A stretch of DNA of 64,000 nucleotides, from positions 7,164,169 through 7,228,168 of the forward strand of contig NC_087079.1 of the NCBI RefSeq assembly GCF_026151205.1, read 5' to 3'. The position numbers and the translations under genes are program-made. Within the stretch, counting starts at the first letter, position 1; every line of letters begins with the position of its first letter. The stretch is from Bolinopsis microptera. Its lineage: Eukaryota; Ctenophora; Tentaculata; Lobata; Bolinopsidae. Positions 8,211 to 56,087 of this stretch are shown in pieces. The notes under the pieces were generated by a model, which worked only from the letters and a program-made list of their open reading frames with translations, searched no databases and was not told where the DNA came from.

Positions 8211-9054
8211 CGCTCCTACTAAATCGCTCGCCCAAATCGAGCTTGCTAAATCACTCTACAGTCGATCTTCGAGATTGTTCTAAAAGGGCCCCCGACAGTT
8301 GAAACCAATTTCAATCGATGTATTTTCGGACGCTGATTCCGAATCACCCACCATGACATAGGGTTAAAATGCTTTCCTGACGAGATATTGGCAAAAAACT
8401 GTTTCGATCACGTGATATGACCGTATAAGGAAGTTAGTCTAGTATCTAGTTAGGGTTAGGGTTTCAGCATATGCTTTTGTTAAGGATTGGGTTAGGGTTA
8501 GGGTTGGGATCAAATTAGAGGGTTAGGGTTTCGAATAGTCGTTCAGGACCAGCTAGAGAAGGGGTTGAAAAAGTCACGTGACAGTCGAGTGTAGATTACC
8601 TGGGGACCCCAGGCTATTATGTTCATTAAGATTAGGCGGAATGACAGGCTGAGCGCGGCCCAGTAAAGTGTAGAGTGATTAATCATCATCCCGCCCAAAT
8701 TTTAAGAAAATTCTTGTGAAAAGGCCCTTTAGGCATGAAAGTGATCTGGATCGGTGTATTTTTGGACGCTGATTCCGAATCACCCCCCATGACGTAGGGT
8801 TAAAATGCTTCCCTGGAGAGTTATGGGCAAAAAACCGTTTTGGTTACGTGACAGGCTAGTAAAACGTGAATTCGATTATTTAGGGCTCGGGTTAGGGTTA
8901 GGGTTAGGGTTGTGGTTAAGATTATGGATAGCTTCGAGGTTATGGTTAGGGTTAGGGTTGGGATTAGGGTTTATGTAAAACCGTTTTGTACGGCTGCAAA
9001 ACCAAAAAAACCAAAGTCACGTGAAATTTTTGGGCGAGCGATTTAGTAAGAGCC
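8211..9054. mobile_element. MULE-like non-autonomous element, 9-bp duplication
   Basis: Terminal inverted repeats of about 26 bp (left CGCTCCTACTAAATCGCTCG, right end inverted with two mismatches) are flanked by a perfect 9-bp direct repeat TATCAGCTG at 8202-8210 and 9055-9063. A 9-bp duplication is usual for Mutator-like elements. The interior contains two diverged copies of a roughly 110-bp block (8310-8415 and 8745-8850, sharing GACGCTGATTCCGAATCACC) and several short runs of GGGTTAGGGTTA. There is no transposase. A 71-bp element is nested at 8596-8666. A solo copy of this terminal sequence lies at 10323-10346. Confidence 0.75.
8596..8666 (+). mobile_element. Tiny hairpin element, family 2 (TTAC...GTAA), 71 bp
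   Basis: Starts TTACCTGGGGACCCCAGG and ends GCGGCCCAGTAA. It is flanked by a perfect 8-bp repeat AGTGTAGA (8588-8595, 8667-8674). The first 18 bases contain the perfect palindrome CCTGGGG-A-CCCCAGG. Other copies are at 10758-10869 and 54763-54845. Confidence 0.75.
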
Positions 9055-9386
9055 TATCAGCTGATAGACCTTAGACTCGTGGCTGATTATTTCTTCATTT
9101 AACAATTAATGATAATCGACACTGAATGGTAAAAAGCGAATACAGAGTTGAGAACAGATGTTATTTTACATTTACATTCAAGAAGCAACTAATATCGAAA
9201 TTGCGGTATGCTTTTAAAGAATCCTACACCAAATAAAAGGCTCGAAAGTCGATGGTGCTGTAGATGTGTCGAGTAAGCATAAAAATGTATTAGTTTATCA
9301 TTATGTTAGAAATAGATACAAATAATAACTAAGACGATCGACAGAATATTTTATTACAGTCAATAAAGTTGGCATACGATGCACTG

Positions 9387-9982
9387 TAGGAGGTGCACCA
9401 TAAAAATAAACTTGCTCGGATTTTAAAAATTTTTGTACCATTGTTTTCTAGAGACTGTGAGAATTTTAACAATACCAAATTTGTCATACCTTTTTGGAAA
9501 GATCAGTGAGTTTCGCCTAGGTGCCATATTTGATGGTGCGCGGCTTTTGGAGCAAAATTAGCTGTAAAAGTTGCGTAATTTGACCAAATTTGACCAAATT
9601 CGTTGATTTTTGTCGTATTATTTGGATATATCTTCAGTTCCTTGAATGAGATCATTCTGAAAATTGGCGACGACCTTCCAATAGGGCTTTTACAACTGTC
9701 CGAAAAATTTGGTGGATATCGGAGTTGATATAGTGATCAAAATGGGGCAAAATACGCTGCTTTTAGCTGTAACATAATGTCTGATGGTTGGATAGGCTTT
9801 AAACTTTTCGGACACCTTCCTTGTAAGTCTATGAGTAAGCTTACCAATTTTTGTTGCAATCGGAGGTCGGAAAGGATACTTAATATCTATTTGTTTGAAG
9901 AAAATTGTGCTGGCCGAAATTAGCGCTAAAAAACCATCCTACAGTCGGCACGCGCGGCTCACTGTCGATGGCGCACTACCTA
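9387..9982 (+). mobile_element. Putative DNA element with short inverted ends
   Basis: The left end TAGGAGGTGCACCAT is matched inverted at the right end (TAGGTAGTGCGCCAT). The flanks ATGCACTG and ATGCAGTA look like an imperfect 8-bp duplication. An inverted partial copy lies at 14142-14317 and shares both the GTACAAAAATTTT region and the terminal CTGTCGATGGCGCACTACCTA-type end. No coding capacity is visible. Confidence 0.5.
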
Positions 9983-10268
9983 GATGCAGTAATATGACGT
10001 GAAATGATACACATCGTTATTTTTAACACGAGACAAAACCGCGCAAAGTATGACTATGAAATGATTTACAATCAAACCACATACACTTACACTTACAGAT
10101 CGACGGCGACACGTACCTCAGATGCGCGCAGGATTTTTTAAGTTCTGCACGCCTAATATAATATAAAAGATTATTAAATGCACGCCAAACACCACTCTGG
10201 CCCGGATACAATAAAGTAAAACAATTACATTGTATGCGGTAGGGAAATTTGATCGTGAGTGGTGTTCA

Positions 10269-10315
10269 TGTTACTGTTACCGCGGCGAAATTCTTTTGCA
10301 GCGGTAACAGTAACA
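10269..10315. repeat. Perfect 15-bp hairpin
   Basis: TGTTACTGTTACCGC at 10269-10283 is repeated as its exact reverse complement at 10301-10315 with a 17-nt loop. A terminal repeat of the MULE-like family follows at 10323-10346. Confidence 0.85.
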
Positions 10316-10757
10316 GTTTAAATTAAGGCGAGCGATTTAGTAGGAGCGCTCACTAGCAGCAGCAGTTAGGACGCATTAGACTAAAAATCAGTTTTTATAC
10401 CAAAATCGTTTGTTATCGAATTTACCCTAGGGAAATTAACGTCCGCGGTAAATTTAGATTTCCAGAGAGCGGGAGTTAAAACCTTACGTCAGGCACAACT
10501 CTAACTCTCTAAATGAACTCTGTCCAGGTTTGTGTCCGGACATTGGGAGAGGGACAAATCTTAATATGCTAAACTAATCATGGTAAGCACCCATTAAAAT
10601 AGAATAAACTGTGCTCATCTACATAGGATTCCTTGTCTAAACGTTGACCGTTTAGAACTTATTTACATTGCCAACTTGGAGATTTTTCCGAAAGTGGTTG
10701 GTTTCGGGCTGGGGCATTGGGAGAGCATATAGGGACAAATCTTAATATGCTAAACTA

Positions 10758-10869
10758 TTACCTGAGGACCCCAGGCTATTATGTTCATTACCTGAGGAAC
10801 CCAGGCTATTATGTTCATTAACATAGAATAAAGATTTGGCGGAATGACAGGCTGAGCGCGGCCCAGTAA
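10758..10869 (+). mobile_element. Tiny hairpin element, family 2, 112 bp
   Basis: Begins TTACCTGAGGACCCC and ends GCGGCCCAGTAA. It is flanked by a perfect 9-bp repeat GCTAAACTA (10749-10757, 10870-10878). Neighbouring copies of the host repeat have an uninterrupted GCTAAACTAAT at this point, so the empty site is visible in the same window. The first 30 bp are tandemly duplicated inside the element. Confidence 0.85.
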
Positions 10870-11019
10870 GCTAAACTAATGGTAAGCACCCATTAAAATA
10901 GAATAAACTATGCTCATCCACATAAGATTCCTTGTCTAAACGTTGACCGTTTAGAACTGATTTACATTGCCAACTTGGAGATTTTTCTGAAAGTGGTTGG
11001 TTTGGGGCTGGGGCATTGG

Positions 11020-11123
11020 TTGTCATACGTTGTATGACGCTCCCCTTGTATTTTGAGTGTGCTGTATCGTAAAAACGTTACAGGATCTATGGTGAAACGA
11101 CATTGGGGTCACGACGTGATCGA
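11020..11123 (-). mobile_element. Tiny multi-hairpin element, family 1, diverged copy
   Basis: Runs from TTGTCATACGTTGTATGAC to a degenerate GTCACGACGTGATC end. It is flanked by an 8-bp repeat GGCATTGG (11012-11019, 11124-11131). The central hairpins have decayed, so this is an older insertion. Confidence 0.7.
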
Positions 11124-12544: not shown

Positions 12545-12685
12545 TTGTATCACGTGGTGACCCCCACGGTCACTTCGACGCTACTTGTATCACGTTGCGA
12601 CCCCCACGGTCGTTTCACTTATCGTCCTGACGATACAGGGGGAGCCGCGCACTTCGTGCGCGGCGGGTCATACAACGTATGACAA
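12545..12685 (+). mobile_element. Tiny multi-hairpin element, family 1, 141 bp
   Basis: Begins TTGTATCACGTGGTGACCCC, ends CATACAACGTATGACAA, and is flanked by a perfect 8-bp repeat TGCAAAGC (12537-12544, 12686-12693). It carries an extra internal copy of the 5' end at 12582. Hairpins: TATCGTC/GACGATA, CCGCGCAC-TTC-GTGCGCGG and GTCATAC-AAC-GTATGAC. Confidence 0.88.
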
Positions 12686-12794
12686 TGCAAAGCACGAGGG
12701 ATTCTTATGAAAATAACGCTGACTTGCTTAAGCACGAGGGGTTATTTTAATATAACTTTTAGCGTGCAGGCGTTTTGTGTTCACTGTTATAAAC

Positions 12795-12892
12795 TTGTAT
12801 CACGCGGTGACCCCCACTGCCGCTGTAGCGTCTTCGACGCTACAGGGGGAGCCGCGCACTTCGTGCGCGGCGGGTCATACAACGTATGACAA
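12795..12892 (+). mobile_element. Tiny multi-hairpin element, family 1, 98 bp
   Basis: Same ends as its neighbour, flanked by a perfect 8-bp repeat TTATAAAC (12787-12794, 12893-12900). The central stem is CTGTAGCGTC-TTC-GACGCTACAG, a 10-bp perfect stem. Confidence 0.9.
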
Positions 12893-12969
12893 TTATAAAC
12901 CCCTCTGGGTTAGAATAAAATTCTGATAATCCCGGCTCCCGCTAGATAGATTTTGTGTTTTGATAATCC

Positions 12970-13079
12970 TTGTCATACGTTGTATTGTGTATGACCCACC
13001 GCGCACGAAGTGCGCGGCTCCCCCTGTAGCGTCGAAAACGCTACAGTGAAGCGACCGTGGGGGTCACCACGTGATACAA
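12970..13079 (-). mobile_element. Tiny multi-hairpin element, family 1, 110 bp, inverted orientation
   Basis: Begins TTGTCATACG and ends CACCACGTGATACAA. It is flanked by a perfect 8-bp repeat GATAATCC (12962-12969, 13080-13087). Its orientation is opposite to the two preceding copies. Confidence 0.9.
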
Positions 13080-15057: not shown

Positions 15058-15108
15058 TGCGCGGCTCCCCTGTATCGTCAGGACCGTGGGGGTCGCAACG
15101 TGATACAA
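15058..15108 (-). mobile_element. Tiny multi-hairpin element, family 1, truncated
   Basis: Retains TGCGCGGCTCCCCTGTATCG and the end CAACGTGATACAA. The other end is missing and no duplication is seen. Confidence 0.6.
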
Positions 15109-15295: not shown

Positions 15296-15423
15296 TTGAT
15301 TGACGATGTCAACCCTTTACTTCCAGATCGTTGCTTTGCGAATAAACAAAGCAACAATCTCGTCATATGTCGATGTGAAGTAAGAATGACAATTTGCGCG
15401 GCGCGTCGAAGTCCTCCAATCAA
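15296..15423 (+). mobile_element. Tiny multi-hairpin element, family 3, diverged
   Basis: Begins TTGATTGACGATGTCAACC and ends AAGTCCTCCAATCAA. Internal stem GTTGCTTTG/CAAAGCAAC. No clear duplication, so probably the older of two nearby copies. Confidence 0.6.
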
Positions 15424-15539: not shown

Positions 15540-15649
15540 TTGGTTGACGATGTCAACCCATCGAGATCGTTGCTTTGCGAAGCAGAGCAACGATCGAAGA
15601 AGCAAGAATGCTAGTTCGCGCGGCGCGTCGAAGCGGCGAAGTCCTCCAA
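15540..15649 (+). mobile_element. Tiny multi-hairpin element, family 3, 110 bp
   Basis: Begins TTGGTTGACGATGTCAACC and ends GAAGTCCTCCAA. It is flanked by a 9-bp repeat with one mismatch, ATTACTATT/ATTACCATT (15531-15539, 15650-15658). Hairpins TTGAC-GAT-GTCAA and GATCGTTGCT/AGCAACGATC, plus a GCGCGGCGCG core. Confidence 0.75.
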
Positions 15650-16056: not shown

Positions 16057-16184
16057 TTGACGGATGATACTCGTTTTAATTTCTTCGAAGTAGCGCGCGC
16101 CGCTTTCTTCTCGAAATGTTAAATGGCCCGACGGCAAGTGCTACGAAGTAGCGCGCGCCGGGCCAGACTATTAACAATGGTCAA
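16057..16184 (+). mobile_element. Tiny GC-core element, family 5, 128 bp
   Basis: Begins TTGACGGATGATACTCG and ends AACAATGGTCAA (TTGAC/GTCAA ends). It is flanked by a 9-bp repeat with one mismatch (ATAACATAG at 16048-16056, ACAACATAG at 16185-16193). Two internal copies of CGAAGTAGCGCGCGCC. Confidence 0.75.
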
Positions 16185-16219: not shown

Positions 16220-17095
16220 TACTCATGCTCAGGGATCGACCGGGGACGAAATTTAGCGGGGGCCGGGACCAAGTTGAATTAACCGGGGCCGGGATTAACC
16301 GGGATTTTGAAATTTTGCCAAGGCCGGGGTCGGGGTTGACGGATGTTACTCGTCTAAATTTCTTCGAAGTAGCGCGCGCCGCTTTCTTCTCGATGGCAAG
16401 AGCTACGAAGTAGCGCGCGCCGGGCCAGATCATTAACAATGGTCAAGGGTCGGGGCCGGGATTGGCTAAAATATGCCGGGGCCGGGATTTTTAATCTAAT
16501 TTTGAAAATTTTTGAAAGTTTCCGGAAACTCGTATCAATGTGATACTTAATGTTTAAGTATAATTACATTAAACGCTGTTTACATTACTACTATGAGTTG
16601 GCGTTATTTCACTGCCAAATATTTCCGACACTGAAGCTGACACCGGAAACGAGTAGTCATTTGTGATCTGATGACTATCATCATCATCTGCATTGAACAC
16701 ATGACTTTACTCGAACTTTTTAATCAACCTCGACCTTTTTTAATCGCAACATTAATATTTTACATTCTTTGTAAATTCAAAGTTGAAATTTTTTGAATAT
16801 CAAACTGGAATGATGTTAAGTCCTCGTATTTATATTTTCACTCGATCTCATGTTACATAACATTTTTTGTTTGATTTAAGTCTAAAAATCAAGATAAATT
16901 CTGATATGATAATCTATCGGTTTAAATTGAGGCAGAAAATACGAGAAATCCCGGCAAAAATTGACAAAAACAGCCGGGGCCGGGATTGGGGGCCTCTGGC
17001 CAGGGCCGGGGCCGGAATTTTGAAAATGATTTTGCCGGGGCCGGGGCCGGGGAAAAAACACAAATCCCGGCCGTATCCGGGGCCGGGATCCCGGT
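16220..17095. repeat. GC-rich GGGGCCGGGA minisatellite tracts
   Basis: Imperfect repeats of GGGGCCGGGATT occupy about 16220-16340, 16447-16495 and 16970-17095, separated by AT-rich DNA. The first tract is split by a family 5 insertion. Confidence 0.8.
16336..16446 (+). mobile_element. Tiny GC-core element, family 5, 111 bp
   Basis: Same ends as the copy at 16057. It is flanked by a perfect 9-bp repeat GGGTCGGGG (16327-16335, 16447-16455), although the host is itself a GC-rich repeat, which weakens the duplication evidence slightly. Confidence 0.75.
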
Positions 17096-22197: not shown

Positions 22198-22383
22198 AAA
22201 ACTTATAAGTATATTATTAACAGAATTGTGTCTCGCCGTTGTGTTTTGTTAGGTATTGTGCTATAATATGAAGTAACATACATTATGCTATCACTTCGTT
22301 TGAATACATATAAATAACATCCAAATGATCAGATCCAATAGGATACTGATGCAGACAATGAAAAATTGAATTGAATTACCACA

Positions 22384-33624: not shown

Positions 33625-35282
33625 CTAATAAGGTAAAAGCTTATAAATAAGTTTTTACCTTTCTTAATATGATCAGTAGTTTACGTCATTGTTACGTAGA
33701 TTATTGCAATGAAAGACCTCTAAGTTAGTGACAAACGATCAACTTTCAATCACTGTGAGGTAAATCCTACCTCGTATTGACATAGTTTACATTACAATAC
33801 ATTTACTTTGAACAGATTATGATATTGACAGCTTTTTGGCGCCACCAACCCCAACCCCCCCCCCGGGCCCCCCCTCCCCCTTCCGGTCCAGCCGCATAGC
33901 GCTGGCTGCCCTTTATTGCGCCCTTGGTCAGCATTTTATTTAAGAGTGTTCATCTGAAATAAATTTGACAGCACTCTGCCTCTATCGCACAGAATAGCGG
34001 CAGTACATTGGTATTGTTCTTTTACAGCCATCTCGGCGATGCTAACCATACTGAAAATTCCCTGGTCACCCTGATTTAAGTCTTTAGTACTACTCAACTA
34101 TTCTAATTATTACTCGAGTATTCCAATTACGTACAGTATGGGATATTTTTGGTCCGCGTCACATCATAAATAAGCCTTGTAATAATGTACTGTACTTTGC
34201 ATGCCTCGTAAAAACTGATACAGCTACAGCCTCTACAATCTGCTTAACTCAATTAAAAGATCATATTTCTTGTTCCAAGTTCTATGTTTTCACTTTTGGC
34301 TCTAAATTGTGAAAATGTAGACATTCTCGTGCAGAACGTTACTCTGAGTGGATAGTGGGACCAAAAACTGCCTATTACTAGCTTTTCTGTCCGGTAGAAA
34401 GTACCTTTTCGCGCACGACTGCTCTCTTTTTAATCGAGCTTGCTAGCTTCATTATTGCAACGTAGCGAAGAGAGAACATTTTTCCAAAGAACTGGATTGG
34501 AATTATTCTTCAAATCGTCATAGTATTCTAGGAATCACAAGCTTCTCCTCAAAGTGGGTACAATGCTATTGACTATAGTGCATATCCCTCTACAGTACAT
34601 CACACATGTTCAGCAGGGTGTACATGTTGAATTCTATTATGAAGCTGTAGCCTGTTATAGTGTGTAGGTACATACCTCAACATTGAACTATAACACTGAC
34701 TCCATCGAGTTTCCTAGCAAACAATTAACTCTTGATTCAAACTGGCTGCACATTGAATAAACAGACTAATATCTCATGCTATTCCCGGATCACTTTACCG
34801 CTACACGTTATCACATCCCACGTGACTTATATTTTCCCACGGGACTATTAAGTGTAAAGTTAAACAAAAAGTATTTCCGAACAGATACTTAAGTTTTTTA
34901 ACTTAAGTCGGTATTTTTTCCCGATCCATGACTCAATGTGAGGTAAAACGGAACATGATAGTCTCCTCCTTACACATAATAACAATAATTATGTAGTATA
35001 ATACAAGCGCCAATTATCTGACACGAGACCTCCGGAGTAAACTGAAGTCCCCCACTTGCCACTGTTGCTCTCATCCAGACAACACCACCTGGATTTCAAA
35101 ATGCAGATCGGCACCCCTACTCGATGATGAGCAATAATCAATTGAGCTACATAATTGTAAATACAGGCTCTTTAAAACACCTGGTATTCGTCAGCAGCTG
35201 TCAATTCTTACAAAAGTTATCAACCATTTCTCAGTGGGTCTGTGTTGTAGGTTTATAAATCAAGAGGCTTGCATATAATGAC

Positions 35283-35393
35283 CTACCAAGACGCGCGCCG
35301 TGTTGGACTCTTCGACGGTCTTGATCGATAATATTTGAATTATAACCTACACAGGCCGTAGGTAGGAAACAAATATTTTACGAGTATCACCCG
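35283..35393 (-). mobile_element. Tiny element, family 4, damaged copy
   Basis: Contains ACCAAGACGCGCGCCG and the end GAGTATCACCCGTTA. An internal insertion or divergence separates the halves, and the TTGTAGG end is not intact. Confidence 0.5.
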
Positions 35394-36253
35394 TTATATT
35401 AAGGTATGTGTGAAGTATTGATGTACAAATGCGATGGTTCGAAGTATCGTCCCTACTCCAATTGAGCTGAGAACCACGATACGACAGCATTTTCAAGTGC
35501 AGTTGATTTGCGTCAGGTGAAACGTGTCCGATACCGTATTTCTTCCTCAGATTGAACTTGTAAAATCTTTGGTGATTACATTAGTATATATAGTTCGGGG
35601 TACCTAGTACAAGTACAACTACAGATTGATGGTACTTATATTAGCTTGTGTAGCTGTTTTAATCAATGCACTAAGAAGAGTTGACCAGTGTTCACATTTA
35701 TACTGTTTTGGAGAGTTCACCAGCAGTGTTGTACTCTATATTACCAGTGCGGTAAGGATTAGTAATATTACCTGGTTTGAATAAAAGAATGTTTAATCTT
35801 TAAAGCCAACAACTTTAATAAAACAAGTCCTGATCATCGTCATGCTACTCAAATCACCAGCATAATTAGAAGTAAAGGGGGAGACAGTTTTTATCAAAAA
35901 CGTTTTTTAATATCAGATACAATAAATTCAACATCTACTTACTAGCTAATATATACCGGGTTAACTTGCTTCGCAAAATTATCTTTAACTTTTAATTTTA
36001 ATGGAAGAATTTAGGAACGAGGACGTTTAGATATAATAGAAAAGTCAGATTGAAAAATTTGAAATTGAATGCCTTGACAAACAAACCAGCTTTCCAAAAA
36101 TAATAAACTCAGCCAAAAATAGAATTAAAAAAAGTTAAAACCGCTCAAAAATTCAAATACATAAATCAGGTCCTTTAATTTCCATGCCTTCCTACTGGCG
36201 GCCCAATTTCCGGTCGGTATCATCAGAGAACTCGTATTATGAGAGAGGATTCG

Positions 36254-44034: not shown

Positions 44035-44664
44035 CCTGTTAAGTGTTATATGATGAAACACTGATATACAGACTTAAGTTCATTTCACCCTTTTCATGAA
44101 ATGGAGGTGTCTACGCAAGGTGTGAATACAAAATTACACATTATTTTAGGGGGGCATCGTCATTGTGGGACAATTTTTAAAAACTTGACTCAACTACTTT
44201 AAAAGTAGTCAGCGAAATTGCATGTTTTTCTCTAGAAACACACTTTTTTAGAAATTTTATTGGTCTATCCTGTAAAATGACCTAATTTGTTGAATTTTAC
44301 CTTTTTGGAATGTTTCTAATGAAGTTTTAGTAAGAATCGAGGGAGCCAGTTATGTCAGTAATAAAGAGAATCATAACGATTATCTTTGGTTTCATCCTTA
44401 TAGTTATGTGGCAAAGAAGCGATTTATAAATCAGTCACACAGTTCTTGACACTGTCACAGAGTTCATGCCACTGTTACAGAGGGTGGTTCAGCGGTGTAA
44501 CAAAGGGCCCCGCTGACCCCGCTGTGCAGGGGGGGGGGGGGTTGCCATCATGGGGGAAAGAATGAACTACAGTACTAGCTAAATCTCACTTTTTTAGAGA
44601 TTTTACAGACATGTCCTCTAAAATCATCTAATTTGTCCAATTTTAGGGAGGCACCAAAGATTAC

Positions 44665-47600
44665 ATAATGGGGGGGGGGGGGGTGTCATGTCCGTCTATG
44701 TCCGCCTATGTCCTGTCCTTTTTGGATTCTATGAGACAACGGACGTGTTTTTTGGGACATTGGCGGACACGGACGGACATTGGCGGACTCGGACGGACAT
44801 TGGCGGACTCGGACGGACATTTGCGGACCCGGACGGACATTGGCGGACTCGGACGGACATTGGTGGACATTAGCGGACATTGGTGGACATTAGCGGACAA
44901 ACATTTTGAGAATTTTTCCCAGAAGGAGGACCTAGGTGGAGGAGGAGGAGAACTGAGGAGGATGACTCAGGAGGAGGAGGACTCAGGAGGAGGACTGAGA
45001 AGGAGGAGGACTGAGGAGGATGGCTGAGGAGGATGGCTGAGGAGGATGACTGAGAGGGAGGAGGAGGAGGAAGAGGAGGAAGAGGACTGAGGAGGAGGAT
45101 GAGAAGGACTGAGGAGGAGAAGGAGGACCTAGGAGGATGAGGACCCAGGAGGAGGACCCAGGAAAAGGCCCTAGGAGGAGGAGGAGGACTGGGGAGGAGG
45201 AGGACTGTTGAGGACTGATGAGGAGAACTGAGGACGAGGAGGAGGAGTAGGAGGAGGACTGAGGAGGGGAGGAGGAAAACGACTGGGGAGGATCAGGAAG
45301 ACCCAGGAGGAGGAGGAGGAGGAGGACCCAGGAGGAGGAGGAGGACTGAGGAGGACTGAGGAGGAGGACTGACGATGACTGAGAAGGAGGAGGACTGAGG
45401 AGTACTGAGGAGGATGGCTGAGGAGGATGGCTGAGGAGGATGGCTGAGGAGGATGACTGAGAGGGAGGAGGAGGAGGACTCAGGAGGAAGAGGAGGAGGA
45501 GGACTCAGGAGGAGGACCTAGAAGAAATGAGAAGGAGGACTCAGGAGAACTGAGGAGGAGGAGGAGGAGGAGGACTGAATAGGAGGAGGAGAAGGAGGGG
45601 GACTTGGAGAGGACTGAGGAGGAGGAGGACTGATGAGAAGGATGAGGAGGAGGACTGAGGAGGAGGACTGAGGAGGAGGAGGAAGAGGAGGAGGATGAAG
45701 AGGAGGAGGAGGACCCAGGAGGAGGAGGACTGAGGAGGAGGACTGAGGAGGACTGAGGAGGATGACCGAGAGGGAAGAGGAGGAGGAGGAGGAGGACTCA
45801 GAAGGAGAAGGAGGAGGACTAAGGAGGACTGAGAAGGAGGAGGACTGAAGAGGAGGAGGAGGACTGAAGAGGAGGAGGAGGACTGAATAGGAGGAGGATG
45901 AGGGGGACTGGGGGAGGACTGAAGAGGAGGATGAAGGACTGAGGAGAAGGATGAGGAGGAGGACTGAGGAGGACTGAGGACTGAGGAGGAAGAGGAGGAG
46001 GATGAAGAGGAGGAGGAGGACCCAGGAGGAGGACCCAGGACGAGGACTCATAAGGAGGAGGACTGGGGAGGAGGAGGACTGTTGAGGACTGATGAGGAGG
46101 ACTGAGGACGAGGAGGAGGAGTAGGAGGAGGACTGAGGAGGGGAGGAGGAAGAGGACTGAGGAAGATCATGAAGACCCAGGAGGAGGAGGAGGAAGAGTA
46201 GCAAGAGGAAGCATCTAAATGTTATTTCCATTTTTGTCCGTTTTTGTCCATTTTTGTCCGTTTTTGTCCGCTCTATTTTTTGTCCGTTTTGAAAATATAG
46301 GGTACCGAACGGTGGAGGAGGACTGAGGAGGGGAGGAGGACTGACGAGGAGGACTGACGATGACTGAGAAGGAGGAGGACTGAGGAGTACTGAGGAGGAT
46401 GGCTGAGGAGGATGGCTGAGGAGGATGGCTGAGGAGGATGACTGAGAGGGAGGAGGAGGAGGACTCAGGAGGAGGACTCAGGAGTAAGAGGAGGAGGAGG
46501 ACTTAGGAGAAATGAGAAGGAGGACTGAGGAGAACTGAGGAGGAGGAGGAGGAGGAGGAGGAGGACTGAATAGGAGGAGGAGAAGGAGGGGGACTGGGAG
46601 AGGACTGAGGAGGAGGAGGACTGATGAGAAGGATGAGGAGGACTGAGGAGGAGGACTGAGGACCGAGGAGGAAGAGGAGGAGGAGGACCCAGGAGGAGGA
46701 GGACTGAGGAGGAGGACCCAGGATGGCTGAGGAGGATGACTGAGAGGGAAGAGGAGGAGGAGGAGGAGGAGGACTCAGGAGGACTGAGAAGGAGGAGGAC
46801 TGAGGAGGAGGAGGAGGAGGATGACTGAATAGGAGGAGGAGGGGGACTGGGGGAGGACTGAGGAGGATGACCGAGAGGGAAGAGGAGGAGGAGGAGGACT
46901 CAGAAGGAGAAGGAGGAGGACTAAGGAGGACTGAGAAGGAGGAGGACTGAAGAGGAGGAGGAGGACTGAATAGGAGGAGGATGAGGGGGACTGGGGGAGG
47001 ACTGAAGAGGAGGATGAAGGACTGAGGAGAAGGATGAGGAGGAGGACTGAGGAGGACTGAGGACTGAGAAGGAAGAGGAGGAGGATGAAGAGGAGGAGGA
47101 GGACCCAGGAGGAGGACCCAGGACGAGGACTCATGAGGAGGAGGACTGGGGAGGAGGAGGACTGTTGAGGACTGATGAGGAGGACTGAGGACGAGGAGGA
47201 GGAGTAGGAGGAGGATTGAGGAGGGGAGGAGGAAGAGGACTGAGGAAGATCAGGAAGACCCAGGAGGAGGAGGAGGAAGAGTAGGAGGAGGAAGCATCTA
47301 AATGTTATTTCCATTTTTGTCCGTTTTTGTCCATTTTTGTCCGTTTTTGTCCGCTCTATTTTTTGTCCGTTTTGAAAATATAGGGTACCGAACGGTGGAG
47401 GAGGACTGAGGAGGGGAGGAGGACTGACGAGGAGGACTGACGATGACTGAGAAGGAGGAGGACTGAGGAGTACTGAGGAGGATGGCTGAGGAGGATGGCT
47501 GAGGAGGATGGCTGAGGAGGATGACTGAGAGGGAGGAGGAGGAGGACTCAGGAGGAGGAGGAGGACTCAGGAGTAAGAGGAGGAGGAGGACTTAGGAGAA

Positions 47601-48493
47601 ATGAGAAGGAGGACTGAGGAGAACTGAGGAGGAGGAGGAGGAGGAGGAGGACTGAATAGGAGGAGGAGAAGGAGGGGGACTGGGAGAGGACTGAGGAGGA
47701 GGAGGACTGATGAGAAGGATGAGGAGGACTGAGGAGGAGGACTGAGGACCGAGGAGGAAGAGGAGGAGGATGAAGAGGAGGAGGAGGACCCAGGAGGAGG
47801 AGGACTGAGGAGGAGGACCCAGGAGGACTGAGGAGGATGGCTGAGGAGGATGACTGAGAGGGAAGAGGAGGAGGAGGAGGAGGAGGACTCAGGAGGAGGA
47901 GGAGGAGGACTGAGGAGGACTGAGAAGGAGGAGGACTGAGGAGGAGGAGGAGGAGGAGGAGGACTGAATAGGAGGAGGAGGGGGACTGGGGGAGGACTGA
48001 GGAGGAGGGAGGAGGACCCAGGACGAGGACTCAGGAGGAGGAGGACTGGGGAGGAGGAGGACTGTTGAGGACTGATGAGGAGGACTGAGGACGAGGAGGA
48101 GGAGTAGTAGGAGGACTGAGGAGGGGAGGAGGAAGAGGACTGAGGAAGATCAGGAAGACCCAGGAAGAGGAGGAGGAAGAGTAGGAGGAGGAAGCATCTA
48201 AATGTTATTTCCATTTTTGTCCGTTTTTGTCCGCTCTATTTTTTGTCCGTTTTGAAAATATAGGGTACCGAACGGACAAAAAACATGATCCCCCTCTATA
48301 ACAGCAAAAATTGAACATTTTATTTAGCAATTTAGGTGTCCATTAATGTCCGCTAATGTCCGCTAATGTCCGTCTATGTCCGCCTATGTCCGCCTATGTC
48401 CGCCTATGTCCGCCTATGTCCTGTCCTTTTTGGATTCTATGAGACAAGCGGACATAGACGAACGTGACACCCCCCCCCCCCCCCCCCCATAAT
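44665..48493. mobile_element. Large satellite-filled element with inverted poly-G ends
   Basis: The left end (ATAATG, 13 or more G, TGTCATGTCCGTCTATGTCC) is repeated inverted at the right end (TGTCACGTTCGTCTATGTCC, long G run, ATTAT on the opposite strand). Subterminal tandem TGTCCGCCTATG and CGGACATTGGCGGACT repeats occur near both ends, together with a direct copy of CTTTTTGGATTCTATGAGAC. The interior is 3.2 kb of GAGGA-type repeats in three higher-order units, each ending in a TTTTTGTCCGTT block (46211, 47290, 48192). No transposase is present. Long Ser/Pro/Leu open frames on the minus strand are translations of the repeat. Confidence 0.65.
44930..48200 (+). repeat. Purine-rich GAGGAGGACTGA minisatellite, higher-order
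   Basis: The plus strand is overwhelmingly G and A, with a regular ACTGA/ACTCA interruption. Three higher-order repeats of about 0.9-1.1 kb are nearly identical over long stretches. Such a purine strand could form triplex structures. Confidence 0.95.
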
Positions 48494-49534: not shown

Positions 49535-52387
49535 TCAGTACAAATCAAAGGACTTTCTAAACAGGTGAGCTTTAAGTTTTCCCTTAAAGTCCTTGATGTT
49601 TACACATTTCGTGATTTCTTGAGGAAGATTGTTCCATAATCTTGGAGCAGATGAAGAGAAGGCTCTGGGTGGACTGTTTATGGGGCAATGAAGAGACACA
49701 TCTCTTCCACCACTGGAATTGTACTTAACAAGGTTTGACAGGTATGAAGGTGCAAGCCCATGGAGCAGTTTGAAAGTTAACAGGAGTATTTTAAATTCAA
49801 TACGTTCTTGTACCTTGAGCCAATGAAGTTCTTTTATGTAGGGATCAACTTCTTCTCTCTTCTTTAGACCTTTGACTAAGCGGCATGCTCTGTTTTGCAG
49901 AGATTGTAGCTGTTTCAAAACAGAATGATTAGCTCCAAAGTAAAGTGCATTACAGTAGTCAAGGGAACTGATGATAAGAGATTGCACGATGATTTGCATT
50001 TGAGTTTCAGAGAGGAATGGTTTCATTTTTGCAATGTTTCGCATCTTGTGGCAGTTTGCAGCTTTGAGCTTCTTTATTTGAGGATTAAATGTTAGTGTGG
50101 AGTCCAATGTAAAGCCAAGGTTTTTAGTAACATTGACAAGTCTTATGCAGACAGAAGGTTTAAGGAAGACACCACCAATTTCCAACTCCGACAAAAGACG
50201 TTTTGAACCAAAAACCATGATCTCAGTTTTTGTCGGATTTAGTAGAAGGAAGTGATCCGCCATCCAGCTCTCAATTTCTTGAAAGCAGGAGGACAGGTCT
50301 TCGCTCAGGACGTGATATTCTGTAGGAGTGGAGAATGACTTGTAAATCTGATGATCGTCAGCATAGCCATGGATGAGGAATTGCTTTGATTTTACAGTCG
50401 AATAGATTGAGCGGATGTAGATATTGTACAAAACAGGGCCGAGGACAGAGCCTTGTGGGACACCAAATTTTATAACAATTTCTTCAGATTCTAGGTCACC
50501 GATCTTTACTTTTTGACAACGACCATGGATGAAGCTGGTAAACCATTTTAAGGCAGTTCCCTCGATCCCAATCTCACACTTCAATATGTTGATTAATTTT
50601 CTGTGATCAACAGTGTCGAATGCAGCACTTAGGTCTAAAAGCATCACAACTGTCGCAGTATTTTCATTACTGGCTACAAGGAGGTCATTGACTATGGTAA
50701 TGAGGAGTGTTTCTGTGCTGTGATGCTTTTTGTAACCAGACTGGTGGTCAATGTCTAAATTGTTCTTGGCTAGATGTTCATTAATGCATTTTAATACAAA
50801 GCGCTCTATGAGTTTACCAATGAATGGAAGATTAGAGATGGGCCTATAATTCTTTAAATTCTCAGTGTCCAGGGAGTCACCTTTGATTAGGGGAGTGAGA
50901 TGTGCTAGTTTGATTCCCTCCATACTTCCGGTTGAAAGGGAAACGTTGATAATATCACAGAGAGTAGGGAGGATTAGTTCAAGGTGCTCTGACAGGAGTT
51001 CTTTAGGTAATGGATCAATTGATGAGGTTTTGATGCCAGATTCTTTGATCAATTCTCTTACTTCAAAAATAGTGGCTTTTCTAAATTCAGATAATACCTG
51101 GCCATTGAAGTTTGCAGAGCTATTAGTCACAGTAGTGTTGGGAAATGATGATCTGATTTTCTCAATTTTTTCAGTAAAATACTGGTTAAAGGCATTTACT
51201 GTTTCCTGGAGATCTTCTGAAGATGGCAATGTGAGGTTCTTTTCTTTATCCAGGAAAGTGTCCACAAATTTGTAAAGGCTCTTTTGTGAGTGTTTGTATT
51301 TTTGGAAAGTATTAGAGAAGAACAGTTTTTTCTTTTTGAGAGTCAGCTCTGAACAGTGCTCTCGCAAATGAACAAAGATAGAATGATCAATTTCAAGACT
51401 TGACTTTTTCCAGGCTTTCTCAGCCTTTCTTCTATCAACTCTTGCAACTTTGTATTCGCCATCAAACCAGGGAGCAGTGGGAATATCTTTGATGGTTTTG
51501 GAATATTCTGGAGCATGTAAATTGAGAATGTTTTGGCACCCATTATTGAATTGATTAACAACTTCACAGAAGCTCTTTTCTTCGAAGACCAACTCAGAAA
51601 GAGCAATGGATAAATCACCTTTAAATAGCTCCTGATCGATGTCTCTGATCTTTCTGAAACGTATGATTTTCTCACATTTGTCAATGTCTGGAGGCTTATG
51701 AAGCTGAAATAAAATTGGATAGTGGTCACAAGATGGGAAACTTTTGACCATGTTTTGTATCACCTCAACAGAATTATGATCTACTACCTTGTGTGAAGAA
51801 ATGACAGGATCAAGAATGTGACCTTTTTTATGTGTTGGCGAGGAGACAAGTTGATGGAGTCCAAAAGATGAGAGTATGGTTTTCCACTCACTCACATGGG
51901 CAGAGATTCTATCTAGGTGCATATTAACATCTCCACATAGCAAGAAATGCTTGTATTTTGAAAATACTTCAGTCAAGAAGTCTTCAAAATCAGACAGGAA
52001 CCTTCCCAAGGGCCCAGGTGGACGATAGATGCAGGAGCAGAAAACGACAGACCCATCAAACAGTTTCAGTTTTGCGTTAATTGCCTCAAATGATCCATCA
52101 TTGTTGGCAAAAACTTTGACTAGCCGAACACATGATTTGTAGATTATGGCAACACCTCCACCTGATTTATTCTTGCGATGCATTTGGTAAAGTTTATACC
52201 CGTGGTCTTTTATTTTTGCAGTGGTGTTGTTGTTTGCATCAGTCAGCCATGTTTCTGTAACAAAGAAAAGAGAAATGTCGTTATCTTCTAAAAAGTTCAT
52301 AACATGCTCGACTTTGTTGTTGAGGGAGCGTACATTCCAGCTTGCACACTTCATACTTAGGATTTTAACTCCAGTCTTGTTCTTCAC
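49535..52387 (-). CDS. L2 LINE ORF2: endonuclease + reverse transcriptase, about 950 aa
   Basis: The endonuclease domain spans about residues 12-230 (CASWNVRSLNNK, VTETWL, SGGGVAIIY, CIYRPPGP, LLCGDVNMHLD, SCDHYPILF). The reverse transcriptase is around 480-750 (LTPLIKGDS, NYRPISNLPFIGKLIERF, LLDLSAAFDTVDH, GVPQGSVLGPVLY, GYADDHQ near residue 674). The C-terminus has the L2-typical RAFSSSAPRLWNNLPQEI ending. The first codon of the open frame is GTG and overlaps the ORF1 stop (TGGTGA). The first ATG is 11 codons later, so translation may restart there. No stop or frameshift, so the copy is young. Confidence 0.95.
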   Translation of the reverse strand: MKNKTGVKILSMKCASWNVRSLNNKVEHVMNFLEDNDISLFFVTETWLTDANNNTTAKIKDHGYKLYQMHRKNKSGGGVAIIYKSCVRLVKVFANNDGSFEAINAKLKLFDGSVVFCSCIYRPPGPLGRFLSDFEDFLTEVFSKYKHFLLCGDVNMHLDRISAHVSEWKTILSSFGLHQLVSSPTHKKGHILDPVISSHKVVDHNSVEVIQNMVKSFPSCDHYPILFQLHKPPDIDKCEKIIRFRKIRDIDQELFKGDLSIALSELVFEEKSFCEVVNQFNNGCQNILNLHAPEYSKTIKDIPTAPWFDGEYKVARVDRRKAEKAWKKSSLEIDHSIFVHLREHCSELTLKKKKLFFSNTFQKYKHSQKSLYKFVDTFLDKEKNLTLPSSEDLQETVNAFNQYFTEKIEKIRSSFPNTTVTNSSANFNGQVLSEFRKATIFEVRELIKESGIKTSSIDPLPKELLSEHLELILPTLCDIINVSLSTGSMEGIKLAHLTPLIKGDSLDTENLKNYRPISNLPFIGKLIERFVLKCINEHLAKNNLDIDHQSGYKKHHSTETLLITIVNDLLVASNENTATVVMLLDLSAAFDTVDHRKLINILKCEIGIEGTALKWFTSFIHGRCQKVKIGDLESEEIVIKFGVPQGSVLGPVLYNIYIRSIYSTVKSKQFLIHGYADDHQIYKSFSTPTEYHVLSEDLSSCFQEIESWMADHFLLLNPTKTEIMVFGSKRLLSELEIGGVFLKPSVCIRLVNVTKNLGFTLDSTLTFNPQIKKLKAANCHKMRNIAKMKPFLSETQMQIIVQSLIISSLDYCNALYFGANHSVLKQLQSLQNRACRLVKGLKKREEVDPYIKELHWLKVQERIEFKILLLTFKLLHGLAPSYLSNLVKYNSSGGRDVSLHCPINSPPRAFSSSAPRLWNNLPQEITKCVNIKDFKGKLKAHLFRKSFDLY

Positions 52388-53005
52388 CAGTTTTTTGAAG
52401 TGTAATATGAAATTGATTTCTTAAGCTTATGTTGTTCAGACACATAGGTAGGGCATGTTCTGTCTGTAGCTGAGTGTGTGTATTGCTCATTAGTTCTCTT
52501 AGATTTCTTGCAATTTACACAGGAAGGCTTAAAGGATGGTGAACCCTTGTTTGGACATGAGTTAGTTTCATGCTCGTCAGAGCAAAGCGCACAAACGGGA
52601 TGAGATGCTTTACAATGGGCAATGTAATGCCCGAAAAGTTGGCATTTATTACATCTTTTGACGTAAAAATGGTCATACACTTTGCAGCGGTAGAGTCCTA
52701 TCGAGAGGTAGTTGTCCCGGTTCTCTATTAGCTTTCGTATAGAGTTACTCACTCTAACAGAAGCCTGGAACAGCGGGTTTTCATCATTATGATTTCGTTG
52801 TTTGCGCACAGAGATAACAGAGAATGTCTCGCCAGAATCAGTGAGGGACTTGATTTCAGGATAAAGTTTCATAATGGAAGCAGAGAGATTTTCAGGTGAG
52901 ACGTCCTCTCTGATTCCTGATATGGATATTGTAGGCAATTTTTCTTTAGGTTGCTTAAGACCTTGCTTACTCAGAGTAGATGTAATGCTATTTGATAGCT
53001 AAACC
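52384..53005 (-). CDS. L2 LINE ORF1, N-terminally truncated, zinc knuckles
   Basis: The open frame begins without a start after a stop at about 53005. It contains a probable RNA-binding fold (LPTISISGIREDVSPENL) and then three Cys/His clusters: CNKCQLFGHYIAHC (a CCHC knuckle), CALCSDEHETNSC and CVNCKKSKRTN. This is the gag-like ORF1 of the I/Jockey/L2 type. Its last codons overlap the start of ORF2. Confidence 0.8.
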
Positions 53006-53024
53006 CATTGAAACGAGGTCGATC

Positions 53025-53313: not shown

Positions 53314-53319
53314 TGATTT

Positions 53320-54028
53320 TGCATTTACATAGGTAAAATGAACTTGTCATGTCTAATTTTTAATTAAACTAAGCTCAGTTAATGTAAGAGCCGCTTTAGA
53401 AAGCACTGGAGTGTATCTCCAGGATTAAATTATATCGAGTTATATGATTTAGCTATAAGGCGGTTTATGTCTTATGAATGTTGTATTTATTATCGTTATA
53501 CACAGCAGTTAATGCCACTTAATGTTCGGAGGAGTGGCACCACTCTCTTGCTACCGCCATAGGCAAGCATAACTATACCATTTGATACTCTCTAGTTCAA
53601 TGGATTCAAAATAATGACGAATCGCCTAATTCCCACGAGAAGTCCAGTAGACCATCGTGGCCTTGCTTCGAATTCAGGGATTTACGGTTTACTACCACTT
53701 AGTAGTATTCATTCAAACTTATCAAGTACCGCTTTCCTTTTATTTGTTCATAATTAACAGAGCTAGCTCTGTTACAGCTGTAGATATCCAGCGTTAACTT
53801 AGAAGCAAGCGTATAGCGTGTTATAAGTTATTCTATACAAATTTATGTTTGCGCTCGATTTTATCACACTAACTACATAAATCTCAAGCGAAGTAGTGCG
53901 CGTCGTGGAACATTTTTAGGTCACGTGTAATTTGAAATCAGAAGTACAATTTTTTCGAATAATATTACAAAAGTAGTAAAGAGTCAAATCAATCAATCAA
54001 GTTTGAAGTTGATTTTATGATTTTTATA
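53320..54028. other. No gene; possible LINE 3' UTR then unique DNA
   Basis: The first 150 bp may be the 3' UTR of the LINE fragment (AAGAGCCGCTTTAGAAAGC). Nothing recognised afterwards. Confidence 0.4.
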
Positions 54029-54195
54029 TACCTTAAGAACGACAAATTTAGTTTACCATAAATTTAGTCTGCTTTAAAATTAGTCGCCGAAAAATTTAGT
54101 TTTGAGACTGAATGAGCATAAAATTTGGTTTACAACAATTTTAGTCAAAAGTTTGATTAAGTTTATGATAGACTAAATTTGTTGTTTTTAAGGTA
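54029..54195. mobile_element. 167-bp palindromic MITE
   Basis: TACCTTAAGAACGACAAATT at the left end matches the inverted right end with a few mismatches over about 40 bp, with little else between the arms. Confidence 0.65.
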
Positions 54196-54298
54196 AAATG
54201 CAAATTGACATGTATTTATTTAAGCAAAATAAAGTCAATTTTTCACAATTAGTGCATTTACAAAAGTTTGGTATAAATAGCGCAATTTTGTAAAATGG

Positions 54299-54413
54299 TT
54301 GATTGACGGTGTCAACCAATCGAGATCTTTGCTCTGCGAAGCAAAGCAACGATCGACGATGCGATGCAAAAAAGCTAGTTTGCGCGGCGCGTCGAAGCGG
54401 CAAAGTCCTCCAA
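54299..54413 (+). mobile_element. Tiny multi-hairpin element, family 3, 115 bp
   Basis: Begins TTGATTGACGGTGTCAACC, ends AAAGTCCTCCAA, and is flanked by a perfect 9-bp repeat GTAAAATGG (54290-54298, 54414-54422). Same hairpin order as the copies at 15.3 and 15.5 kb. Confidence 0.88.
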
Positions 54414-54630
54414 GTAAAATGGGGCCGGCTGTCGTATTGATGGATTGTCTGATCTCGTTTACATTTTTGTTTTTCGAAAGAGCGCGCGCCACTTACTTTT
54501 CGAAATATTAAAGCTAAGATTTACCAAACCATTTGTCTTTTCTCAAAAAATTGTCTTTTATCAAATGCTCATGCTCTCGCGCCATTGCAGGCGCGCTTCT
54601 TTCACAAATAAATAAACGCCGGGATGACAT

Positions 54631-54729
54631 TAACGGGTGATACTCGTTAAATATCTGTTCCATATAGAGGACCGTCGACGAGTCCAACTCGGCGCGCGTC
54701 CTGGTAGGTTGTAAACCTACATGCTACAA
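54631..54729 (-). mobile_element. Tiny multi-hairpin element, family 4, 99 bp
   Basis: Begins TAACGGGTGATACTCG and ends CTACATGCTACAA. It is flanked by a perfect 9-bp repeat GGATGACAT (54622-54630, 54730-54738). Hairpin GTAGGTT-GTA-AACCTAC and a GGCGCGCGTCC core. Confidence 0.85.
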
Positions 54730-54762
54730 GGATGACATGACTCATGTCAGACATGATGGCGC

Positions 54763-54845
54763 TTACCTGGGGACCTCAGGCTATCATGTTCATAAAATAG
54801 AGATTAGGCGGAATGACAGGCTGAGCGCGGCCCTGGGCCCAGTAA
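54763..54845 (+). mobile_element. Tiny hairpin element, family 2, 83 bp
   Basis: Begins TTACCTGGGGACCTCAGG and ends GGGCCCAGTAA. Flanks show no clear duplication, so older or rearranged. Confidence 0.65.
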
Positions 54846-55113
54846 AAGGGCGTGCGCTACTGCAAGGGCTCGGGAAAGAGCAATAGCTCTAGGATATATT
54901 AAACTAGAAGCAATTGTGCGACATGCTACGAAGTACTATATACAACGTAGCACACATCGGGTCAGTCCATTAATGCCAGTTCCTGTGCACGGCGCTCTTC
55001 TCAAGCTTCCTATATATATACGTGAGAGGAGCAAGTAATAAACTAGCAAGCGCAATTGCAATTCAAGCTAGGTAAAGCTAAGGTCGGTTTGCTCTGACTA
55101 GAGCCCTCGCACG

Positions 55114-55236
55114 TTGTATCACGTGGTGACCCCCACGGTCGCTTCACTATAGTATCGTTTTCACTATAGTATCGTCTTCGACGATACAGGGGGAGCCGCG
55201 CACTTCGTGCGCGGCGGGTCATACAACGTATGACAA
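55114..55236 (+). mobile_element. Tiny multi-hairpin element, family 1, 123 bp
   Basis: Begins TTGTATCACGTGGTGACCCC and ends CATACAACGTATGACAA. It is flanked by a perfect 8-bp repeat CTCGCACG (55106-55113, 55237-55244). The central stem is GTATCGTC-TTC-GACGATAC, differing from the copy at 12.8 kb by a compensatory pair. Confidence 0.92.
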
Positions 55237-55472
55237 CTCGCACGTACTTGCAGTAGTACGTGCCCGCAGTCACGTATAGTTGTTCACGAAGACTCGTGGT
55301 TATGTAAACACTGAACAGGTCGGTAAAATAAAATCGATCAACAGATTGTAGCGCGATGCACTACTGGGTCGCGCCGCGCATCAAATAATTCTTCGGTAGA
55401 TCGGCGAGATGCACCACTGTGCCTCACCGAGCTGCGCAGGATTGACATCGTGAATCAAGGGTTACACTAGTA

Positions 55473-55530
55473 TTAATATAACCTCACTGAACTTCTGGAG
55501 GCAGTTGTTTCAGAAGCAGATATTCTGTTT
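55473..55530 (-). pseudogene. C-terminal remnant of a GPCR paralogue
   Basis: The minus strand reads NRISASETTASRSSVRLY and a stop, matching NRISAFETTVSRSSLGV at the end of the GPCR at 56.1 kb. DNA identity is about 85% over 50 bp. No more of the receptor is seen, so this is a relic of a tandem duplicate. Confidence 0.7.
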
Positions 55531-55701
55531 GAGAAGACTATAGTCTGTTAAAAATATAATGCTTTTGGACACGAAGGGAAACACACAACGTAAGGCTTGA
55601 AATCTTCGTAAAACTACATCATTAGAGCCTGTAAAAACCTTTAACTTTAAGATAAGCACTCTTTCAAGTAAAATTCATATATTATAATCATCATAGTTTA
55701 T

Positions 55702-55769
55702 TTGTAGGTTTACAACCTACCAGGACGCGCGCCGAGTTGGAACAGATATTTTACAAGTATCACCCGTTA
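55702..55769 (+). mobile_element. Tiny multi-hairpin element, family 4, 68 bp
   Basis: Begins TTGTAGGTTTACAACCTACC and ends AGTATCACCCGTTA. It is flanked by a perfect 9-bp repeat ATAGTTTAT (55693-55701, 55770-55778). The hairpin is GTAGGTT-TAC-AACCTAC. Opposite orientation to the copy at 54.6 kb. Confidence 0.88.
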
Positions 55770-56087
55770 ATAGTTTATTAACTCAAACGTAAAAATTGTA
55801 ACAAAGGCAAAATTTGATCAGTCAAAATTCGTAGCATGTAAGTAATTATGATGGGGTACAACTCCACTCGGAAAATTATAGTATAGTATGAAACAAACTA
55901 AAGCTGACAAGCAGTGACTAGAACTACTTATCAAACAAAAATGCCTTAATCGGTCTTAAAACTGCAGTGTACTATTACTGTAAATTGATGACGCTAAGAA
56001 ATGTCGTTAAAGTAGTGACGATAACATTAAAAGCATAATATAATCTCTTCTACATACCAGCTATATAGCAGACTAGTCCGTATCTCA

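What the first reader, a model, noticed from the sequence alone, without database searches (positions are those of the whole stretch)
8588..55778. Five families of 68-141 bp multi-hairpin mobile elements with clear target-site duplications
Thirteen intact or near-intact insertions plus truncated ones fall into five sequence families sharing one design. They are tiny, built from consecutive short-loop hairpins, carry a CG-alternating core (CGCGCG type), and start with TTG/TTA. Ten have 8- or 9-bp flanking duplications (eight perfect, several differing at one base in families 3 and 5). They cluster at 8-17 kb and 54-56 kb. Families 4 and 5 share ACGGRTGATACTCGTT, suggesting common descent. Seen directly: ends, hairpins and duplications. 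Inference: a cut-and-paste transposase of hAT (8 bp) or MULE (9 bp) type moves them. I know of no described group matching this set, but I cannot search.
Basis: partly seen in the sequence, partly recalled or inferred. Interest (0 to 1): 0.82.

Follow-up and report, generated by a model that had tools for sequence, protein, structure and literature searches.

The report
Tiny mobile DNA with dyad ends
A comb-jelly-like animal genome carries many copies of several families of tiny (about 70-130 base) jumping DNA pieces whose ends share one folded shape rather than one sequence, and the enzyme that moves them is still unknown.

Summary
The genome is 264.65 Mb with 13 large contigs, ctenophore-like (inferred). 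All five families recur genome-wide. With fixed ends, 77 of 108 sampled copies have a perfect target-site duplication; flanks mispaired between copies give 0-0.4%. In 8 of 11 nested insertions examined, removing the insert and one duplication restores the host element.

The new point is the end design: 11 of 12 ends (six families) read TT + 7-nt arm + 3-nt loop + 7-nt arm; mean pairing 5.9 of 7 against a shuffle maximum of 3.7. With the commonest variants of A-E it is 9 of 10 ends, mean 5.65. Ordinary terminal inverted repeats are only 2-5 bp. Duplication length (8 mostly in A and B, 9 mostly in C and D, mixed in E) does not mark two enzymes: families A-E each give both lengths, and both groups share one target signature.

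The hAT/MULE assignment is not borne out by the loci sampled; no coding partner was found.

Best reading: non-autonomous, MITE-like elements moved by a DDE-type enzyme that recognises a dyad at each end; a new variant of a known kind. Recognition by shape rather than sequence is possible but unproven.

The parts
8596..8666 (+). Family A copy, 71 bp, TSD AGTGTAGA (8 bp)
   Evidence: both ends TT+7-3-7
10758..10869 (+). Family A copy with its first 30 bp duplicated, TSD GCTAAACTA (9 bp)
54763..54845 (+). Family A copy, no clear TSD
11020..11123 (+). Old diverged family B copy, TSD GGCATTGG (8 bp)
12545..12685 (-). Family B copy, 141 bp, TSD TGCAAAGC
12795..12892 (-). Family B copy, TSD TTATAAAC
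12970..13079 (+). Family B copy, TSD GATAATCC
55114..55236 (-). Family B copy, TSD CTCGCACG
15296..15419 (+). Family C copy, no TSD found
15540..15649 (+). Family C copy, 9-bp TSD with one mismatch
54299..54413 (+). Family C copy, TSD GTAAAATGG (9 bp)
16057..16184 (+). Family D copy, 9-bp TSD with one mismatch
16336..16446 (+). Family D copy, TSD GGGTCGGGG (9 bp)
54630..54729 (+). Family E copy, TSD GGATGACA (8 bp)
55702..55770 (-). Family E copy, 69 bp, TSD TAGTTTAT (8 bp)
55346..55458 (+). Family F copy (sixth family), no TSD in the window; F copies elsewhere have one (L063, L125, L152, L154)
35281..35396 (-). Degraded family E copy (two matching stretches)
54464..54512 (+). Fragment of family D
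15058..15108 (+). 3' fragment of family B; right end set by the end motif, left end approximate

Best explanation
These are non-autonomous DNA transposons, MITE-like in size and behaviour. An unidentified DDE-type transposase, or a set of related ones, acts in trans: it binds a dyad site (TT + 7-3-7) at each end, excises the element, and joins it to staggered cuts 8 or 9 bp apart at targets that favour a pyrimidine three bases outside the cut and G as the first duplicated base. Shown: families, ends, duplications, nested insertions, shared end geometry, shared target signature. Inferred: DDE chemistry, excision, dimer binding to the dyad, and that one enzyme type serves all families.
For: Duplications 77/108 against 0-0.4% in mispaired flanks. 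Nested insertions restore the host element in 8 of 11 chosen cases. End geometry at 11/12 ends, mean 5.88/7 against a maximum of 3.67 over 1,000 shuffles even when the best geometry is taken; 9 of 10 ends and mean 5.65 with the commonest variant of each A-E end. A design-only scan (dyad + TSD) gives 127 hits in 352 kb against 4 in reversed sequence, and 75 vs 1 with both ends at least 5/7; of the 127, 101 have two known-type ends, 19 one, 7 neither. These loci were mostly fetched for their copies, so 127 is not a genome density. Target signature in two groups: Y at -3, p = 3e-5 (A+B, 45 targets) and 5e-8 (C-F, 43 targets); G at position 1, p = 4e-6 and 3.5e-4. Many copies are near-identical: 10 E copies are one 69-bp sequence, 8 B copies one 103-bp sequence.
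Against: No coding partner with these ends was found in what was examined: 19 of 19 B-type ends with a different interior, 700 bp inward each, 4 unresolved; 20 of 40 such E-type ends, 1.92 kb inward each, 2 unresolved; 22 loci for 88 MULE matches; 6 hAT loci. The C 3' end does not fit the dyad rule (3/7). TIRs in the usual sense are nearly absent. Excision was not tested.
Confidence: 0.72

Rival explanations
1. One enzyme recognises the shape (a hairpin or cruciform extruded at each end) instead of the base sequence, so unrelated families are mobilised together.
For: Geometry constant while end sequences differ between families; arm changes that keep pairing in the C-type end: GG/CC 16, AA/TT 4, GA/TC 4 of 31; D and E 5' ends GA/TC 22, AA/TT 4 of 48; a 152-bp insertion that uses two E 3' ends with an 8-bp TSD (L168); two families side by side at the same 9-bp target (L173).
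Against: A dyad bound as double-stranded DNA by a dimer predicts the same geometry. The genome-wide conditional test is dominated by one subfamily: of the 100 listed of 263 matches, 89 are AA/TT; 91 of the 93 with A at the first arm base have T opposite, but all 7 with T or C there are unpaired (tallied by eye). In one search, 7 of the 31 C-type ends have a mismatched or G-T pair at the varied positions, and 21 of the 48 D/E ends are AA/TA with one mismatch. The B 3' variant breaks rather than keeps a pair.
Confidence: 0.2
2. A MULE (Mutator-like) transposase not among the sampled loci, or one whose ends could not be set, moves them.
For: 88 MULE matches in the genome, many with open frames; mixed 8/9-bp duplications are usual for MULEs (recalled).
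Against: 22 MULE loci fetched (about 12 groups by score): no TT + 7-3-7 element with a duplication around the coding region; ends that could be read are GGG-like or other.
Confidence: 0.25
3. A hAT transposase moves them (first reader, for the 8-bp families).
For: hAT is abundant (150 scored of 366 candidates); hAT duplications are usually 8 bp (PMC12730594, passage), as in most A and B copies.
Against: In three groups (6 loci) the readable ends are other, CAGG-like in two groups; 9-bp duplications prevail in C and D.
Confidence: 0.05
4. Retroposition of a structured small RNA (SINE-like).
For: Stable internal hairpins in B and C.
Against: Duplications of 8 or 9 bp and sharply defined ends on both sides; no tRNA gene (bacterial code) and no Rfam match at the gathering score in the window.
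Confidence: 0.03
5. The dyads are by-products of hairpin-templated repair that makes arms match, with no role in mobility.
For: The third B hairpin shows frequent indels and partial copies, and several B copies have indels in the 5' dyad.
Against: Terminal dyads sit at a fixed distance from the end in six families; 20 of 25 B copies have the identical 19-nt 5' end.
Confidence: 0.1

Closest known systems
MITEs (miniature inverted-repeat transposable elements)
   Same: Size, copy number, no coding, 8/9-bp duplications, near-identical copies
   Different: Usual TIRs nearly absent (2-5 bp perfect runs); each end is instead its own dyad; internal hairpins fill much of families B and C
CMITE of Acropora corals (PMC2872659; abstract, introduction and part of methods seen)
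   Same: Non-bilaterian MITE group with unusual features, families sharing parts
   Different: CMITEs are linked to piggyBac-like transposons and were found by matching 13-14 bp TIRs; here TSDs are 8/9 bp and TIRs are 2-5 bp
Mutator TIRs at placozoan loop anchors (PMC12221973; section 9 and passages seen)
   Same: Short transposon ends spread through a non-bilaterian genome; the same paper links ctenophore loop promoters to transposable-element insertions and a GC-rich motif
   Different: No family like this one appears in the passages seen; the ctenophore motif's letters are not in them, so overlap is untested
Merlin superfamily (PMC8101967; passages seen)
   Same: 8- or 9-bp duplications; hits reported in three ctenophores
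   Different: Merlin termini are 5'-GG with TIRs of 24-462 bp
Double-hairpin and GC-cluster elements of mitochondria (recalled; abstract openings in search listings only)
   Same: Tiny mobile hairpin elements
   Different: Organellar (recalled); these copies lie on the large contigs and have 8/9-bp duplications

Membership tests
MITE | Short, non-coding, many near-identical copies | tested here: met
MITE | Target-site duplication of characteristic length | tested here: met
   8 or 9 bp (one of 10), 77/108
MITE | Terminal inverted repeats of about 10 bp or more | tested here: not met
   Perfect terminal runs 2-5 bp, 8-13 of 19 identical without gaps, six families
MITE | Related autonomous element with the same ends | tested here: inconclusive
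   None found in the loci examined
MULE (Mutator-like) non-autonomous | Ends shared with a MULE element of the genome | tested here: inconclusive
   22 loci fetched for 88 matches; none shows these ends, but ends of several groups could not be set
hAT non-autonomous | 8-bp target-site duplication | tested here: inconclusive
   Mostly 8 bp in A and B, mostly 9 bp in C and D, mixed in E
hAT non-autonomous | Ends shared with a hAT element of the genome | tested here: inconclusive
   6 loci (3 groups) of 366 candidates; none shows these ends
Merlin non-autonomous | 5'-GG termini | tested here: not met
   Ends are TT; Merlin rule from PMC8101967
KDZ / Zisupton | Zisupton 8-bp TSD with a KDZ transposase; Kyakuja CA..TG ends and 7-bp TSD | not tested
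   Kyakuja ends differ (PMC12730594); no KDZ search of the genome was made

The most novel reading that the evidence does not exclude
A single transposase in this ctenophore-like genome recognises a terminal hairpin or cruciform by shape (TT + 7-3-7) and so drives many families with unrelated end sequences, with any two such ends, close to the lower size limit for a transposon: 69 bp in many copies, and 31-56 bp in three single copies with intact duplications.
Probability: 0.18. Interest if true: 0.85.

Novelty: new variant of a known kind. Interest (0 to 1): 0.55.

Why it matters
Transposon families are normally sorted by end sequence; here the conserved feature is end geometry. If the ends are read as a dyad or a hairpin, annotation by sequence or by ordinary inverted repeats could miss such families, while a geometry-plus-duplication scan finds them (127 hits against 4 in control, in loci mostly chosen for their copies). 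Ctenophores sit at a deep branch of the animals, and none of the titles and abstract openings listed is a study of ctenophore transposons. The GC-rich, CpG-bearing elements are also candidates for the transposable elements linked to loop promoters in Mnemiopsis (PMC12221973), which can be tested directly.

Tried and rejected
Autonomous partner by paired ends: a pair of E-type ends 2.1 kb apart was fetched as L114 and proved to be a cluster of copies and pieces of A-F with no long element by the design scan.

B 5' ends with a different interior (19 places, all fetched with 700 bp inward): most are deletion forms, insertions inside the B dyad or copies with another family nested in them; four (L122, L123, L136, L139) run into other DNA with no convincing B 3' end in the stretch held, so a longer element there is not excluded. 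The longest stop-free stretch in these 19 loci is 140 codons.

E 3' ends with a different interior (40 places; 20 fetched with 1.92 kb inward): 18 have an E-like other end by a loose pattern (in L173 it may be chance), 11 of them with a duplication; L163 and L166 have none. The four longest stop-free stretches (373, 228, 213, 196 codons) have no transposase family in Pfam at E 0.01: two have no match, one matches PIH1 and DUF1935 (the latter below its cut-off), one DUF6451. The 20 not fetched are untested.

MULE and hAT loci: see rivals. Minimal copies of 56, 35 and 31 bp (L134, L162, L121) are one locus each and may be deletions after insertion, so I do not claim that 31 bp moves. Coral CMITE, Merlin and KDZ were compared from papers only.

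Print search: nine listings, of which looked for such elements; no title or abstract opening shown describes a matching group. Subscription journals, Repbase and preprints are not covered, so this does not prove the group is undescribed.

Organism: inferred, not named by any tool. Thirteen contigs add up to 258.07 of 264.65 Mb (97.5%; lengths, added by hand). The Bolinopsis microptera paper gives 13 chromosome-scale scaffolds with 97.23% and a 1n size of about 254 Mb (PMC10232365, figure legend), so the fit is close but not exact. Mnemiopsis also has 13 chromosomes, with a 247.97-Mb assembly (PMC11797021, abstract opening). A glutamate receptor with a long open frame (L144) matches ML032222a best (197.8 bits; the next distinct molecule 110.4), with many substitutions, so Mnemiopsis itself is unlikely. 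That ML032222a is a Mnemiopsis protein is recalled.
Full report
Setting. The window lies in a 264.65-Mb genome of 232 contigs. Thirteen contigs of 15-26 Mb carry 97.5% of it (lengths, added by hand). Together with a glutamate receptor closest to ML032222a, recalled as a Mnemiopsis protein, this points to a lobate ctenophore, most likely Bolinopsis (compare PMC10232365, passages seen); this is inference.

Families. B (103 bp commonest) starts TTGTCATACG and ends GTGATACAA. C (mostly 108-117 bp) starts TTGGTTGAC or a variant and ends CCTCCAA. D (mostly 124-133 bp) starts TTGACGG and ends TGGTCAA. E (69 bp commonest) starts TTAACGGGTG and ends ACCTACAA. Each DNA search lists 40-45 matches out of hundreds to over a thousand rough candidates. 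I fetched 20 places per family out of those listed; they are the copies closest to the query, so they are not an unbiased sample.

Duplications. With ends fixed by sequence, perfect duplications directly adjoining the ends are found in 16/21 A, 19/25 B, 15/22 C, 17/24 D and 10/16 E copies (8 or 9 bp, one C copy at 10), no copy being counted twice, while flanks mispaired between copies of a family match in 0-0.4%. A looser collection over the loci held by then gives 90 insertions with perfect duplications: A 17 of 8 bp and 3 of 9 bp, B 24 and 1, C 3 and 12, D 4 and 14, E 5 and 6, F 0 and 1. In the window, 11 of 16 copies are perfect, 2 have one mismatch and 3 have none.

Mobility. I chose eleven nested insertions seen in the loci: B in A, C in A, C in E (two), F in B, E in B, A in B, B in E, D in F, D in B and D in E. 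After removing the insert and one duplication, eight give a stretch of the host family across the junction (from 41/41 bases for F in B to 81/100 for D in E). Two had no perfect duplication by the pattern used, and in one the alignment stopped at the junction. L173 shows A and F side by side, separated and flanked by three copies of the same 9-mer.

End design. Reading each end inward, TT is followed by a 7-nt arm, a 3-nt loop and a 7-nt arm in 11 of 12 ends of six families (scores 5-7 of 7, G-T counted as half); the C 3' end scores 3. The mean at this geometry is 5.88 of 7. Geometries with another centre reach at most 3.25; the values of 4.7-5.5 in the table have the same centre with arms shifted outward or inward. 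The best geometry over 1,000 shuffles reaches 3.67. With the commonest variant of each A-E end the scores are 5, 5.5, 7, 5, 7, 3, 5.5, 6, 5.5 and 7, mean 5.65, so the result stands. In contrast, the two ends of a family agree in only 2-5 leading bases. A scan that knows only the design (TT, dyad at one end at least 6/7, AA at the other, perfect 8/9-bp duplication) gives 78 hits in 191 kb against 2 in reversed sequence, and 127 in 352 kb against 4; of the 127, 101 have two ends of known type, 19 one and 7 neither. It also returned family F. Most of the loci were fetched because they hold copies, so these numbers show specificity, not genome density.

Shared ends. D and E share their 5' end (65 genome matches to the shared motif). 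The C 5' end and the F 3' end resemble each other (TTGATTGACGATGTCAATC and TTGATTCACGATGTCAATC). L168 carries two E 3' ends as the ends of one 152-bp insertion with an 8-bp duplication. So ends behave like exchangeable modules.

Pairing changes. In the C-type end the two outer pairs occur as GG/CC 16, AA/TT 4, GA/TC 4, GA/CC 4, GA/TT 2 and AG/CC 1 of 31. In the genome, 263 copies of this end do not start with G. Of the 100 listed, 89 are AA/TT; 91 of 93 with A at the first arm base have T opposite, and all 7 with T or C are unpaired (by eye). This favours pairing but counts few independent events. The B 3' end varies against pairing.

Target signature. Reading the target across both flanks of 88 insertions, both the A+B group (45) and the C-F group (43) avoid A and favour a pyrimidine three bases outside the duplication (pyrimidine p = 3e-5 and 5e-8) and favour G as the first duplicated base (p = 4e-6 and 3.5e-4, both half-sites of a target counted, 12 positions tested, no correction). 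The positions stood out already, but the two groups agree. Another strong deviation, G and lack of C at -4 in C-F (p = 6e-5 for G), is absent in A+B. The shared part is the best evidence that one type of enzyme serves all families, and it argues against two superfamilies split by duplication length.

Partner. MULE (88 matches) and hAT (150 scored of 366 candidates) are both abundant. Twenty-two MULE loci (about 12 groups by score) and six hAT loci (3 groups) were fetched; none shows TT + 7-3-7 ends with a duplication around a coding region. Ends of several MULE groups could not be set, so MULE remains possible. Terminal dyads of B and E attached to other interiors led mostly to nested, shortened or degraded copies; six of these 39 loci (L122, L123, L136, L139, L163, L166) stay unresolved in the stretch held, and the longest stop-free stretches show no transposase family. 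Merlin is unlikely because its ends are GG (PMC8101967). KDZ was not searched.

Mechanism, shown and inferred. Shown: insertion with an 8/9-bp duplication, common end geometry, common target signature, no coding. Inferred: a DDE-type enzyme in trans, dimer binding to a dyad at each end, excision. Whether the dyad is read as double-stranded sequence or as an extruded hairpin is open; the second is the novel case.

Verdict. Real, repeated mobile elements; a new variant of the MITE kind because the usual inverted repeats are replaced by self-contained dyads at each end; partner unknown; hAT not supported, MULE not shown.

Noticed in passing
window 55089-55113 and 55237 onward; L093 and L154: Probable seventh family (G), starting TTGCTCTRACYAGAGC; the B copy at 55114 sits inside it (read). 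A similar stretch lies inside an E copy (L093) and an F copy (L154), seen.
   Followed up: partly
window 8450-8970: Interstitial runs of the telomere-like repeat GGGTTA in two blocks.
   Followed up: no
window 57893 onward: Long tandem array of a 58-bp unit (80 overlapping matches to a 300-nt reference), many 98-100% alike.
   Followed up: no
window 18763-22248 and 49535-52420, minus strand: Long open frames that look like LINE reverse transcriptases by eye; no family search was made.
   Followed up: no
window 44647-48483: Low-complexity region with serine/proline-rich open frames and inverted repeats 3.4-3.7 kb apart.
   Followed up: no
L114 (C1:19418100-19420700): Dense cluster of copies and pieces from all six families within about 1.4 kb, which suggests insertion near or into one another (by eye).
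   Followed up: partly
L121:3940-3970, L162:1886-1920, L134:645-700: Elements of 31, 35 and 56 bp with perfect 8-9 bp duplications, little more than the two ends.
   Followed up: partly
G000 C12:11782391-11809362 and others: Large set of glutamate receptor genes with open frames up to 989 codons, partly in clusters (32 matches).
   Followed up: no
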